Assembly (NCBI RefSeq): GCF_003606385.1
Contig: NZ_CP032514.1
Coordinates: 1,426,001-1,490,000, forward strand
Direction of reading: 5' to 3'
Length of the DNA: 64,000 nt
From: Actinomyces lilanjuaniae
GTDB lineage: Bacteria; Actinomycetota; Actinomycetes; Actinomycetales; Actinomycetaceae
Both the position numbers and the translations under genes were made by a program. Below the pieces are notes generated by a model that ran no database searches, had not been told where the DNA came from, and saw only the letters and a list, made by a program, of their open reading frames with translations. Of this stretch, positions 20,035 through 26,370 are shown one piece after another. The stretch's first letter is position 1, and each line of letters begins with the position of its first letter.

Positions 20035-20267
20035 GGGGGTGCTCCTTCATCAGTTGACGGGGTGGAGGCCCGGGCGGGCCTCGCTTCCGTACGCGACCGG
20101 AGGCAGGGTCGGCTGGTGACCCAGCCACCGGAAGGCGGCAGTGCCAGGAAGTCTACGTCGTTGTCCTGTGGGGGGCCAGGCCTCATAGCGGTGGGCTGCC
20201 AGCTCCCGAGGTGGCTGGCCCAACCTATAACCGACATAGGCCGGTGGCTTAGCGGCCTCTTAGCGGC
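20035..20267. other. Intergenic segment holding the left island repeat
   Basis: It contains the DUF349 ribosome site, the left 70-bp repeat (20111-20180), and a short region with two tandem CTTAGCGGC units near 20248-20270 just after the toxin stop. Open frames read through it share the peptide DNDVDFLALPPSG with the right repeat, but nothing else supports a gene. Confidence 0.5.
20111..20180. repeat. Left 70-bp direct repeat of the toxin island
   Basis: This segment, starting GGCTGGTGACCCAG and ending GGGGGGCCAGG, recurs at 22661-22730 in the same orientation with one mismatch (ccagC/Tcacc). It lies in the upstream region of the DUF349 gene. On the minus strand it contains a TAGACT hexamer that could be a -10 box. 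Confidence 0.95.
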
Positions 20268-21667
20268 TTAGGCCTCGGTTGCGTCTGCGGTTTCTGGTGG
20301 GGGTCTGGCGTGGGGTGGGGGCTGGGTGGGCTGCTGGGCGGCTGCGGTGATCCTGGCCAGGACCTCCTCGCGGGTCAGCGGCCGGGGTGGTCTGTCTGTG
20401 GTGGGGCCTGCCTGGGGCTGGGCCTGTGCTGGTGGTGTTCGTACGGTGGTGGGTGGGTGGGGGAAGGAGGCCTCGCGCAGGCGGGTGGTGCGGGCGAGGT
20501 CGGTCCCGGTGGGTGCCTCGCGCCGGTCCTGGGCCACGTGGGACGCGATGTTGGCCAGGACCTCCTCGCGGGTCAGCGGCCGGGGCGGCTGGCCTGCACG
20601 GGGCTGGCCCGTCTGGGGCGGCCCAGCCGTAGCGGCGCCGGTGCGGGTGGGGCCTGGCCGGGGTGGCTCCGGCGACGGCTGGCTGGTGGTGGGCTGGCCT
20701 GGTCCCGGCTGCCCGGTCCCGGGCCGGGTCGTGGCCGAGGGCGCGGGCTCCTGTCCCCGGGCTGGTGGGTGCCAGGGTGGGTGGCCTGCGGCGATGGTGG
20801 AGGCGAGGTGGGTGGGGGTCCACGGTGGCCCCGGGGGCTGGTGGCGCTCACCTGGGCCTGGGTGCGGGGCTCCAGGTGCGCCTGGCCGTGGCGCAGGTCC
20901 TGAGCCAGGTCGGGGGAGCCGGTGAGGACGGCGCGCACCAGCAGGCGCACGTGCGGCCTCTGGTCGGGTGGGACCTGGAGGGCGGCCTGCTCCAGGACCG
21001 CCACCATGGGCCTGTTCTGGCCGCCGACGGAGGAGTTGACCGCCTTGTGGCCCAGGGAGGGCCAGCCCTCGGTGGTGGCGGGCTGGGAGGGGCCGTAGGT
21101 GACCTGGTCGGGCTCGTGGAGGACCACCAGCGCCCGGTCGATCCTGGCCGTCTCCGCCAGCGCACGCTCCTCAGAGAACTGGTGCACACGCTGCAGGTCG
21201 TCCACGACCTGTTCCATGAAGAGGTCCCGGGCGTCCCTGGTGGTCTTGGAGGTGGGGTGGCGGCCCTGGGTTCGGTAGGTGCGGATGCCCTCCAGCAGGC
21301 GCTCAGCGGACAGCAGGGACAGGGCTGAGAGCTGGCGGTCGAGCTGGCGGGTGAACTCGGAGGCCAGCGCCTGGGTGGAGGCGTGGTGGCCGGTGTGGAA
21401 GAACACCTCCACCGGCACCGCGGAGTGCCAGGCCAGCGGGCTGGCCGGGGCTGCCACCGACCCCTCCCACACCAGCACCCCCTGCCCGCCCGCCCTGCCC
21501 GGGGTGAACATGTCCCCAGGCGCCAGCGAGGCACCAGGACCAGGAGCCCCGCCCCCGTGGCCAGGGGCCTGGCCACCACCGCTGCCTGCGGGACCAGCGG
21601 CGGGGGCGGGTGGGCGCCCGCGCCCGCGCCTGAGCCAGCGGGGCCGGCCCCGCCAGCGCCCGGGCAT
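20268..21667 (-). CDS. Ntox15-type polymorphic toxin (Tde1-like DNase), frame broken
   Basis: The central domain matches Ntox15, the nuclease family of Agrobacterium Tde1: a RQLDRQLSALSLLSAERLLE helix block, a basic segment, the catalytic HxxD motif in VVLHEPDQVTYG (His codon 21116-21118, Asp codon 21107-21109), then KAVNSSVGGQ. Family members are DNase effectors. The ATG at 21667 overlaps the immunity stop as TGATG. Near 20829-20837 the frame must shift by one base to enter a Pro-rich C-terminal tail ending at 20268 that contains two in-frame PPRPLTREEVLA repeats. A third frame over 21550-21665 reads as a Gly/Ala/Pro linker, so a direct fusion to the immunity protein cannot be excluded. No export domain is visible. 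Confidence 0.75.
20354..20585. repeat. 34-bp direct repeat, two copies 198 bp apart
   Basis: Identical 34-base copies lie at 20354-20387 and 20552-20585 (starting TGGCCAGGACCTCC). The 198-bp period is 66 codons, so on the minus strand both encode PPRPLTREEVLA in the same frame. This supports that frame as the translated C-terminus of the toxin protein. Confidence 0.9.
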
Positions 21668-22498
21668 CACGACCCCGCCCCGGCCCGCCCGTCCCCTCCT
21701 CACCGGGGCCACCGGCACCGCCCGGGCCGCCGCCTGTCCCGTCACCGGTGCCCGGGCCGCCTGCGGCGATGCTGGCGGCTGTCTGCGCGGCGGCGGCGGA
21801 GAAGTCGGGGCCCAGGACGTGGTCCTGGGCCTGGGCCAGGAAGACCAGGTGCGCGGTAGCGTCCTCAATGCCGACCTGGCTGGTGCTGACACGCCCGGTG
21901 AAGCAGTAGGCCGGGGTCAGCCCGTAGACCTGCCCCGCCCCCAGCACCCCCAGGTTGTCTATGGCCCAGTCAGCCACCAGCACACCCGTGTCGTCGTCGT
22001 CGATCGTGTCCCTGCGTGGTGAGACCAGGGTGTTGGCGCCCATGCGCTCACGCATCACCGGGTCAGCCATGTCCCGGGCGTGGCCGGAGTGGGGGTAGAC
22101 GGTTCCCAGGGCGGGGGTGAGGGTCAGGGCGGGGCCGGAGACCTCCCCCACACCTTCATGGCCCCCATCGCGGAGCGGGCCAGGCACCACCACCGCTGCT
22201 CCGGGAACGGCACAGGGGTGCCCTCCAGCCACGCCTGGACCACCGGGGCCCACCGGAAGGGGTCAGCGAACCACCACCGCCCCTGCCCGAACCCGTCGAA
22301 CCCGAACCTCTCCCACAGGTGCAGCACCGAGGCGGGCAGCACACCGCCGAAGTAGCTCACGTGCTCCTCCGTGACAGGGGCACCCACACCCATGGGCGAC
22401 CACCCCCGCAGCCTCAGTGCCTCCTCCATACGTGCGTCCACCCACTCAGGCGTGGCGTGCAGCCACGCCTCGTGCCACTGAGCCTCGCTCATCCGCAT
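21667..22498 (-). CDS. GAD-like/DUF1851 immunity protein (Tdi1-like), frame broken
   Basis: The first frame (from 22498) encodes a GAD-like domain: LWERFGFDGFGQGRWWFADP, then WLEGTPVPFPEQRWWCLARS and MKVWG. Adding one base to the C5 run at 22145-22149 continues it into a DUF1851 domain: EVSGPALTLTPALGTVYP, and further on YGLTPAYCFTGRVS and HLVFLAQAQDHVLG. This pair of domains is that of Tdi1, which neutralises the Ntox15 DNase Tde1. A second one-base shortfall, likely at 21693-21696, brings a Gly-rich tail to the TGA at 21667-21669 that overlaps the toxin ATG. Inferred length is about 277 residues. ATG 22498 or 22492 may be the start; neither has a strong ribosome site. Confidence 0.75.
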
Positions 22499-22895
22499 AA
22501 ACCAAACCGTAACCCTCACCACACCACCACCACAACCCCTCCAGGCACAAGACCCACCCCAGGCACCAACGGAAGGGGCAGGACACCTGAGACCGGTGGC
22601 AGATGAGAAGGACCCCTCCCAGCCACCAGCAAGGCACCCACCACGCCCCCCGTGCACCCTGGCTGGTGACCCAGTCACCGGAAGGCGGCAGTGCCAGGAA
22701 GTCTACGTCGTTGTCCTGTGGGGGGCCAGGGCTTGGAGCAAGCATCGGGAGCCTGGACCGGCCGGACCTAGGCGGAGGTGTCCCTGGTAACCTGACGGAG
22801 CCAGGTCCGGGAGGCAGCCCCGGCCGGAGCCCGGCAGACGCGGGTGTCCCGGCCTGTGTGTTTTGTTACCGGAACGGGAGTACGGAGGGATACCC
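22499..22895. other. Intergenic region before the aldo/keto reductase, with right island repeat
   Basis: About 400 bp divergent between the immunity gene and the reductase gene. It holds the right 70-bp repeat (22661-22730). A GGAGGG ribosome site at 22884-22889 serves the reductase. Two open frames crossing the repeat look non-coding apart from the short peptide shared with the left repeat. Confidence 0.5.
22661..22730. repeat. Right 70-bp direct repeat of the toxin island
   Basis: It matches 20111-20180 at 69 of 70 bases in the same orientation. The two copies bracket the toxin/immunity genes, leaving about 2.48 kb between them. No integrase or transposase is encoded inside. Confidence 0.95.
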
Positions 22896-23920: not shown

Positions 23921-23970
23921 CGCGTGTTCCGTCCTGCCCCGGCCCTGGCCGGGGCAGGACGGAACACGCG
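23921..23970. repeat. Perfect 24-bp inverted repeat between two genes
   Basis: Arms CGCGTGTTCCGTCCTGCCCC+GGCC and their exact reverse complement are separated by only two bases (CT). It lies 20 bases after the reductase stop and 12 bases before the metallo-hydrolase ATG. It could be a terminator for the reductase, although there is no T-run, or an operator over the downstream promoter. Confidence 0.9.
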
Positions 23971-24806: not shown

Positions 24807-24877
24807 CCGGTATGAACCGGTATGACCCCTGTCCTCCTAAGAGGCGCCCCTGACGGACTCCTGACGGACCGCCATGA

Positions 24878-24890
24878 CACAATGTGCCCT
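24878..24890 (+). promoter_or_regulatory. Probable leaderless promoter of hisS
   Basis: CACAAT at 24878-24883 lies seven bases before the hisS ATG with no ribosome site between them. The same CACAAT-to-ATG layout recurs before yciO. Confidence 0.4.
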
Positions 24891-26370
24891 ATGGCTCAGG
24901 TGCAACAGGCAGTATCCTCCCTCTCCGGCTTTCCCGAGTGGCTCCCCACGGGCCGCCTTGTGGAGCAGTCCTTCCTGGACACGTTGCGCACCGTCTTCGA
25001 GCTCCACGGCTTCACCGGTATCGAGACCCGGGCCGTTGAGCCCCTGTCGGCACTGACGATGAAGGGGAGACCTCCAAGGAGGTCTACCTGCTCTCCCGTC
25101 TCCAGGCCGGGTACCCCAGCCCGGTGGGGACCTCGACCCCCGCCACCAGCTTGGGCTCCACTTCGACCTCACTGTCCCCTTTGCCCGCTACGTGGTGGAC
25201 AACGCGGGGGCGCTGTCCTTCCCTTTCAAGCGCTACCAGGTGCAGAAGGTCTGGCGTGGCGAGCGGCCCCAGGAGGGACGTTTCAGGGAGTTTGTCCAGG
25301 CCGACATCGACGTCGTGGCCGACGGCACCCTGCCGCTGCACTACGACGCCGAGCTGCCGCTGGTCATGCACGAGGCCCTCACCGCCCTACCGGTACCCAG
25401 GGTGACCATCCACGTGTCTAACCGGAAGGTGGCCCAGGGCTTCTACCAGGCTGTGGGCATCAGCCAGGACCAGGTGATCGAGGTCCTGCGCGTGGTCGAC
25501 AAGCTGGACAAGATCGGGGAGCAGGCGGTGGCTGCCGAGCTCGTGGACGCCGTCGGCACCACGCCACAGCAGGCCCAGCGCGCGCTGGCGCTGGCCCGCG
25601 TCAGCGGTACCGATCCCCGCGACGTCTCCGACCAGGTCCACCGTGCCCTGGACGGTGCCCAGCCCACCGAGCTCCTCCAGGAGGGGCTGGGCGAGCTTGC
25701 GGCCGTCCTGGACTCGGCCGGGCGCCGACGTCCGGGAGCGCTCCTGGCTGACCTGCGGATCGCCCGTGGCCTGGACTACTACACCGGCACCGTCTACGAG
25801 TCCTTCATGGAGGGGCACGAGGACCTCGGGTCGGTGTGCTCCGGCGGGCGCTACGACTCCCTGGCCGCAGGCTCAGGACGGACCTACCCCGGGGTCGGCA
25901 TATCGATCGGCCTGTCCCGCCTGCTGTCCCGGGTCGTCTCGGCAGGCCTGCTGGAAGTCAGCCGCCCCGTACCCACCTGCGTCCTGGTGGCTGTTACTGA
26001 CGAGGAGCACCGCTCCCGCTCCGAGGAGATCGCCGACACCCTGCGCGCGCGCGGTATCAGTGCCGACGTGTCGCCCTCGGCGGCGCGGTTCGGCAAGCAG
26101 ATCCGTTTTGCCGACAGGCGCGGCATCCCCTTCGTCTGGTTCCCGGCCACCGGAGCCGACAGTGCCGACGACGCCCCCCGGGCGGACGGTGCTGACGACC
26201 CGGGCGGCTCCGACTCGGTCAAGGACATCCGCAGCGGGGAGCAGGTCCAGGCTGACGCGCGCACCTGGACTCCCCCTGAGGATGACCTGCGCCCCCAGGT
26301 GCGTGCCACGGTACTCCAGGCCGGGTACCGGGACAGGTACCAGGACGGGTGCACGGGCTCTGGACGGTGA
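24891..26370 (+). CDS. hisS: Histidyl-tRNA synthetase (frame broken twice)
   Basis: Class II synthetase charging tRNA-His. Three frames must be joined: the N-terminus (MAQVQQAVSSLSGFPEWLP, to LSALTMKG), a short middle (ETSKEVYLLSRLQAGYPSP), and the rest from DLDPRHQLGLHFDLTVPFAR. One G is short in each of the G4 runs at 25064-25067 and 25126-25129. The remaining catalytic motifs are intact: RFREFVQADIDVV, RGLDYYTGTVYE, SVCSGGRYDSLA and the C-terminal anticodon-binding domain. Inferred length is 493 residues. As the only hisS seen here and normally essential, the breaks are most likely sequence errors. Confidence 0.92.

What the first reader, a model, noticed from the sequence alone, without database searches (positions are those of the whole stretch)
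20268..22498. Tde1/Tdi1-type (Ntox15 with GAD-like/DUF1851) toxin-immunity module in a Gram-positive chromosome
The sequence shows an HxxD-containing Ntox15 domain (LHEPDQ, KAVNSSVGGQ) next to a GAD-like plus DUF1851 protein (FGFDGFGQGRWWFADP, YGLTPAYCFTGRVS). The founding pair, Agrobacterium Tde1/Tdi1, is a type VI secretion DNase effector with its immunity protein. No type VI genes, PAAR, VgrG or type VII (WXG100/EssC) genes are in this window, and the toxin has no recognisable export domain. How, or whether, this toxin leaves the cell is open: it may be an orphan cassette, an intracellular defence or addiction module, or use an unknown route.
Basis: partly seen in the sequence, partly recalled or inferred. 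Interest (0 to 1): 0.8.

Follow-up and report, generated by a model that had tools for sequence, protein, structure and literature searches.

The report
Scattered, shuffled bacterial DNase toxin-immunity genes
The spot holds an immunity gene followed by a DNA-cutting toxin gene of a known family; the unusual part is that this one chromosome carries eight scattered copies whose toxins look like shuffled patchworks of each other, with no obvious way out of the cell.

Summary
The pair is real: on the minus strand, 22498 to 20260, GAD-like and Tdi1_C (DUF1851) immunity domains, then an HxxD Ntox15 domain. In this record both genes are split between reading frames; the only hisS found in the genome is split too, so assembly errors are likely. 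Tde/Tdi pairs in Gram-positives were reported in 2014, and WXG100-Ntox15 with GAD-like/DUF1851 in mycobacterial prophages later, so that part is not new. The genome also has an ESX-type T7SS locus outside the window.

Unusual: the pair is one of eight copies scattered in this chromosome, eleven in relative G037. Immunity comes first in 37 of 39 toxin genes examined. Relatives show no secretion domain and mostly end in L-x-R (52 of 68). Copies come and go between sister genomes, and toxin domains are mosaics (0 of 1000 permutations).

Best reading: a recombining Tdi-Tde repertoire for competition among Actinomyces, export route unknown. Intracellular addiction and decay remain live rivals.

The parts
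22205..22498 (-). GAD-like (N-terminal) part of the immunity gene; conserved start at 22498
   Evidence: PF08887 E 1.4e-14; domain match immN in L044 = window 22205-22492; start located
21771..22052 (-). Tdi1_C/DUF1851 (C-terminal) part of the immunity gene, in another frame than the GAD-like part
   Evidence: PF08906 E 0.0021, below cut-off; immC match to the sibling in L043; frames
21497..21517 (-). GDMFTPG motif near the toxin N-terminus
   Evidence: located; conserved in alignment A1
20933..21361 (-). Ntox15 domain
   Evidence: PF15604 E 1.6e-12, residues 178-320 of ORF 20573-21892
21104..21121 (-). HxxD motif (LHEPDQ)
   Evidence: kept in 24 of 24 first-subfamily domains examined (2 split copies dropped)
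20260..20830 (-). Pro/Arg-rich C-terminal tail with a repeated LTREEVLAxI motif, ending in RNRGLSR and a stop; lies in frames other than the Ntox15 domain in this record
   Evidence: (repeat D4 20349-20390 / 20547-20588)
20258..22580 (-). Unit shared with the dispersed sibling cassettes (about 80 bp leader + immunity + toxin)
   Evidence: outer bounds of blastn matches to sibling loci
20111..20183 (+). Direct repeat, 3' side of the cassette
   Evidence: 73 nt, 97% to the other copy; only these two full copies in the genome
22661..22733 (+). Direct repeat, 5' side of the cassette
   Evidence: in the sister genome G037 one copy is found

Best explanation
A tdi-tde (immunity then toxin) cassette of the known Tde/Tdi family, one member of a multi-locus repertoire in an Actinomyces chromosome. 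Shown: family membership by sequence, immunity-first order, dispersal, gain or loss between sister genomes, and mosaic toxin sequences. Inferred: the toxin is an Mg-dependent DNase acting through HxxD, the immunity protein binds and disables it, and the toxins are used against neighbouring Actinomyces cells lacking matching immunity. The exit route is not shown. Candidates are the ESX T7SS acting in trans, or an unknown route reading the conserved C-terminal end; no known N-terminal signal was found.
For: Profiles; PDB matches of the family profiles; immunity fold 6itw/8g0k_B/8fzz_B; HxxD in 24 of 24. Eight Ntox15 places here and eleven in G037; unit bounds. Sites without a cassette in G000 for 4 of 5 unpaired G037 cassettes. 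Recombination: toxin 15 copies, 110 sites, 0 of 1000 permutations; within G000 and within G037 too. Immunity dN/dS 0.27-0.47 in six comparisons against 0.71-1.14 for three toxin comparisons. Tandem imm-tox arrays in other species. YukD/EccD in 9 of 12 carriers against 15 of 37 non-carriers, one-sided p 0.04, uncorrected for kinship or for testing two families.
Against: No export domain or signal found in relatives. EccB in only 4 of 12 carriers against 9 of 37 others, p 0.40, so the ESX machine is not required for carriage. Toxin and immunity distances do not co-vary among copies of this clade (rho 0.11, 28 pairs). immC shows no recombination signal. The toxin model is poor (pLDDT 52.6) and its best PDB hit, Tde1 8fzy_B, is not significant (E 0.13). 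The window copy is frame-broken as recorded. Two of six flanking control genes change as fast as the immunity gene (raw ratios 0.43, 0.46).
Confidence: 0.55

Rival explanations
1. Intracellular addiction or defence module: the toxin stays in the cell, the upstream immunity gene acts as antitoxin, and scattered copies persist because losing the immunity kills the cell or because they stop phages.
For: Immunity first in 37 of 39, as in many type II TA operons (recalled); no export domain; some copies sit beside genes that read by eye as valS (L043) and trpS (L047), not in an obvious secretion locus.
Against: Immunity can be lost while the toxin stays (L055, and a stub in L059), so single loci are not addictive by themselves; toxin domain mosaic and fast-changing; one genome of the order carries Ntox15 in a 1994-aa multi-toxin protein.
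Confidence: 0.22
2. Decaying relics: the copies are mostly pseudogenes, kept alive only by sequence exchange, with no present function.
For: The two immunity parts lie in different frames in 5 of 8 copies of this genome (L042, L044, L047, L048, L049) and the toxin domain is split in L045; deletions or losses in L055, L059, L060; high dN/dS of the toxin.
Against: The only hisS found is split too while G037's is whole, so splits are partly assembly error; intact genes exist in A. glycerinitolerans, A. ruminis, A. succiniciruminis and others; HxxD 24 of 24; immunity constrained.
Confidence: 0.18
3. T7SS toxin whose ESX-recognised part has been overlooked or is supplied by a partner protein (a special case of the best explanation).
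For: ESX-type locus in the genome; WXG100 in 49 of 49 genus genomes; mycobacterial prophage versions are WXG100-Ntox15.
Against: No WXG100 among the precomputed Pfam domains of 68 relatives nor in P0009 and P0041; EccB absent in 8 of 12 carriers; YukD/EccD absent in 3 of 12, one of them an 82% complete genome.
Confidence: 0.2

Closest known systems
Agrobacterium Tde1-Tdi1 (Ma et al. 2014, PMC4096383; passages seen)
   Same: Ntox15/toxin_43 with HxxD; GAD-like plus DUF1851 immunity; the paper already lists Gram-positive carriers without T6SS
   Different: Here immunity precedes toxin, no PAAR gene was found in the genus, the toxin domain is followed by a long tail, and there are eight dispersed copies
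Bacteroidales Tde1/Tdi1 and Tde2/Tdi2 (PMC10470768; passages seen; PDB 8fzy, 8fzz, 8g0k)
   Same: Profile match to 8fzz_A E 2e-8 including the HxxD stretch; immunity fold match
   Different: There a toxin is fused to Hcp and delivered by T6SS
McProf/MabR mycobacterial prophage PT-Imm cassette (PMC9434293, PMC8191103; passages seen)
   Same: Actinobacterial Ntox15 toxin with GAD-like/DUF1851 immunity
   Different: N-terminal WXG100 domain, toxin domain at the C-terminus, immunity downstream, WXG100 partner gene, prophage-borne

Membership tests
Tde/Tdi toxin-immunity family | Ntox15 domain above curated cut-off | tested here: met
   48.2 bits against 22.5
Tde/Tdi toxin-immunity family | HxxD catalytic motif | tested here: met
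   LHEPDQ 21104-21121; 24 of 24 first-subfamily domains, 2 split copies dropped
Tde/Tdi toxin-immunity family | Adjacent GAD-like + DUF1851 immunity gene | tested here: met
   GAD-like above cut-off; Tdi1_C below cut-off in the window copy, above it at 3 of 7 places of the genome
Tde/Tdi toxin-immunity family | Immunity fold like Tdi1 | tested here: met
   Family representative P0069, not the window copy: 6itw E 5.2e-11
Tde/Tdi toxin-immunity family | Mg-dependent DNase activity neutralised by the partner | not testable with these tools
   needs an assay
T6SS effector | Delivery by T6SS (PAAR, Hcp or VgrG part; machine in genome) | tested here: not met
   PAAR family in 0 of 49 genus genomes; no such domain in P0009 or P0041; VgrG, Hcp and Tss families not searched genome-wide
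T7SS polymorphic toxin | WXG100, LXG or similar N-terminal domain | tested here: not met
   P0009 and P0041 give Ntox15 only; no NCBIfam match for P0009; no such domain precomputed for the 68 relatives
T7SS polymorphic toxin | T7SS machine in the genome | tested here: met
   FtsK/SpoIIIE ORFs, WXG100, EccD, EccB, subtilase in L095; EccE not looked for
Type II toxin-antitoxin module | Antitoxin first in the operon | tested here: met
   37 of 39 toxin genes
Type II toxin-antitoxin module | Toxin acts in the producing cell when antitoxin is lost | not testable with these tools
   needs induction or loss experiments; L055 toxin domain persists without adjacent immunity
Transposable cassette | Flanking direct repeats at the copies | tested here: inconclusive
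   Own up/down flank similarity above the 97th percentile of mismatched flanks in 3 of 17 loci (L044, L050, L060), L058 above the 95th only; no clean target duplication seen by eye at L052 or L058

The most novel reading that the evidence does not exclude
A combinatorial toxin repertoire: dispersed tdi-tde cassettes in one chromosome exchange short segments around the DNase active site, building new toxin specificities in the way gene families for antigenic variation do, and the toxins leave the cell by a route that reads the extreme C-terminal L-x-R end rather than an N-terminal trafficking domain.
Probability: 0.2. Interest if true: 0.75.

Novelty: new variant of a known kind. Interest (0 to 1): 0.48.

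Why it matters
Polymorphic toxins are usually thought to diversify by swapping C-terminal cassettes at a delivery gene (recalled, and stated in the abstract start of PMC3482391). Here, stand-alone pairs sit at many unrelated places of one chromosome and the toxin domain itself is a patchwork, so the family offers a natural set of toxin/immunity variants for mapping specificity. It also makes the question raised in 2014, how Tde leaves cells without T6SS, testable in Actinomyces with and without an ESX system.

Tried and rejected
Tried and dropped. (1) A mobile element with clean ends: unit bounds coincide with the toxin stop and a short leader, and the L052 and L058 empty/filled sites show no clean target duplication. 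(2) The window's 73-nt repeats as a family feature: only 2 full copies in this genome and 1 in G037 among 49 genomes, and they do not fold better than shuffles. (3) ESX as the dedicated exporter: EccB in 4 of 12 carriers against 9 of 37. (4) Contractile injection: phage-sheath family 0 of 49, PAAR 0 of 49. (5) Toxin structure: low-confidence model, no significant PDB match. (6) dN/dS as proof of diversifying selection: the toxin has GC3 0.95, which lowers dS, and recombination breaks the orthology assumption, so I use it only as a comparison. (7) immC shows no recombination signal (811 of 1000 permutations as low or lower). (8) L049 and L050: flanks not found at the predicted places in the other genome, so their history is unresolved. 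(9) A fixed C-terminal end in the whole family: the second subfamily ends otherwise (mostly -PER in the printed sequences).

Full report
Observation. On the minus strand the open pieces match GAD-like (E 1.4e-14), T6SS_Tdi1_C, the former DUF1851 (E 0.0021, below its cut-off) and Ntox15 (E 1.6e-12). HxxD is at 21104-21121, the conserved immunity start at 22498 and the toxin end at 20260. The pieces lie in different frames. No hisS of the genome reaches the family cut-off; the best match is split in two open frames inside the window, while G037's is whole. hisS is taken to be essential from general knowledge, so at least some splits in this record are probably assembly errors. The window is position 1426001-1490000 of a 3.02-Mb single contig.

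Family and prior art. A profile of 23 of the 68 toxin relatives found matches PDB 8fzz_A (E 2e-8), and more weakly 8g0k_A and 8fzy_A, all Ntox15 chains; the printed 8fzz_A alignment covers the HxxD stretch. A profile of 30 immunity proteins matches Atu4351 (6itw, E 5e-5) and 8fzz_B, and the predicted immunity fold (pLDDT 84.6) finds 6itw (E 5e-11), 8g0k_B and 8fzz_B. The toxin model is poor. From passages seen: Ma et al. 2014 showed HxxD-dependent, Mg-dependent DNase activity and already listed Gram-positive carriers without T6SS, noting that another secretion mechanism or function is implied. Two mycobacterial papers describe WXG100-Ntox15 toxins with GAD-like/DUF1851 immunity in prophages. 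Zhang et al. 2012 lists Ntox15 in Actinobacteria among others, with T2SS, T6SS, T7SS and PVC export. The Bacteroidales paper reports that Tdi splits the Ntox15 fold.

Many copies. This genome has 8 Ntox15 and 7 Tdi1_C places; G037 has 11 and 9. Proteins on a contig of the same length as G037's are named Actinomyces wuliandei. Ntox15 occurs in 15 of 199 genomes searched, this one included, 12 of them among the 49 genomes of the genus. Seven of the eight copies here are one subfamily, 77-86% identical in DNA over about 2.3 kb in unrelated surroundings; the eighth (L047) is a second subfamily. Of 39 toxin genes in the 36 loci I examined, 37 have immunity domains upstream on the same strand within 1.5 kb and 2 (L055, L108) do not; loci of G007, G016, G107, G139 and G149 were not in that count. 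Within this genome both immunity parts lie in one frame in 3 of 8 copies and in different frames in 5 of 8.

Gain, loss and exchange. Six of the eight places have toxin-bearing counterparts in G037 by their flanks (L042-L057, L043-L056, L044-L055, L045-L054, L047-L053, L048-L051). At the window's own counterpart L055, the immunity gene and part of the neighbouring gene are missing. L046's place is also found in G037 (L092), where the match covers the immunity part and no Ntox15 place is listed. L049 is unresolved. Four of the five unpaired G037 cassettes (L052, L058, L059, L060) have sites in G000 without a cassette; at the L060 site G000 carries about 1.4 kb of other sequence instead. In 3 syntenic pairs with a whole toxin domain on both sides, 0 are each other's best match. 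A pairwise-homoplasy-type test of mine shows clustering of compatible sites in the toxin: 15 copies, 110 sites, 0 of 1000 permutations as low at three window sizes; G000 alone, 6 copies, 0, 0 and 1 of 1000; G037 alone, 9 copies, 0 of 1000; immN, 12 copies, 0 of 1000; immC, 12 copies, 811 of 1000, so no signal (L045 and L051 are not in the toxin set because split). By eye, alternative segments at about residues 11-22, 61-76, 81-96 and 102-123 of the domain alignment recur in different combinations. L050 and L059 share 969 bp at 97%, and L056 and L060 share 713 bp at 99% outside the toxin although their toxins differ. So sequence moves between places in the chromosome, or between strains and then into several places; the data do not separate these.

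Rates. Between sister genomes the toxin domain has dN/dS of 1.14, 0.87 and 0.71, immunity parts 0.27-0.47 in six comparisons, and six flanking genes raw pN/pS 0.06-0.46, so the fastest flanking genes match the immunity gene. The toxin's GC3 of 0.95 and recombination make the toxin figure unreliable as proof of selection. Toxin and immunity distances correlate across 11 copies of several species (rho 0.77) but not within this clade (rho 0.11, 28 pairs; pairs are not independent).

Export. Of the 68 relatives, 63 have Ntox15 as the only precomputed Pfam domain, 1 has Ntox15 plus PF01430, 1 has PF08906 only and 3 have none; direct scans of P0009 and P0041 agree. No hydrophobic N-terminal stretch stands out (highest 17-residue mean 1.04 among 23). 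Unlike the usual arrangement (recalled), the toxin domain is followed by a tail of 66-207 residues in the 22 of 23 proteins where its start was found. The last three residues are L-x-R in 18 of 23 aligned and 52 of all 68 relatives; several exceptions look shifted, cut or fused, and the second subfamily ends otherwise. The genome has an ESX-type locus at about 146.7-158.9 kb: two FtsK/SpoIIIE ORFs, WXG100 genes, EccD, EccB and a subtilase. Across the genus EccB is in 13 of 49, in 4 of 12 Ntox15 carriers (p 0.40); YukD/EccD is in 24 of 49, in 9 of 12 carriers (one-sided p 0.04, not corrected for kinship or for testing two families). Phage-sheath and PAAR families have no match (0 of 49 each). 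In another family of the order one 1994-residue protein joins Ntox15, TNT and glutamine-deamidase toxin domains.

Flanking elements. The window cassette lies between 73-nt direct repeats that are unique to it in this genome. In G037 a different 69-nt palindrome lies at seven places, five of them beside Ntox15 cassettes (nominal binomial 3e-8, but copies that moved with a cassette are not independent). These look like scars of past rearrangement rather than ends of a transposon.

Verdict. The pair is a Tde/Tdi member; such pairs in Gram-positives are known. The dispersed, mosaic, immunity-first, tail-bearing form is a new variant of a known kind. My searches of the held library listed no paper that describes it; that library lacks most subscription journals and preprints.

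Noticed in passing
window 24855-26328: hisS is split between two frames, with no other hisS above the family cut-off in the genome, and whole in G037; points to indel errors in this assembly.
   Followed up: yes
window 23921-23970: Perfect 24-nt inverted repeat with a 2-nt spacer, between ORFs that read by eye as an aldo-keto reductase and an MBL-fold protein.
   Followed up: no
L050:4727-4795 and six other places in G037: 69-nt palindrome with strong fold in the L050 upstream copy (z -5.1); 5 of 7 places lie beside Ntox15 cassettes, in L057 and L060 next to immunity matches that start late.
   Followed up: partly
L097:5200-11181: 1994-aa protein in another family of the order with Ntox15, TNT and glutamine-deamidase toxin domains.
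   Followed up: partly
L115:13060-15666: 869-aa ORF near a weak WXG100 match at 266.9 kb of this genome; possible T7SS toxin.
   Followed up: no
G028 and G029: Tdi1_C matches without an Ntox15 match: orphan immunity genes in 2 of 49 genus genomes.
   Followed up: no
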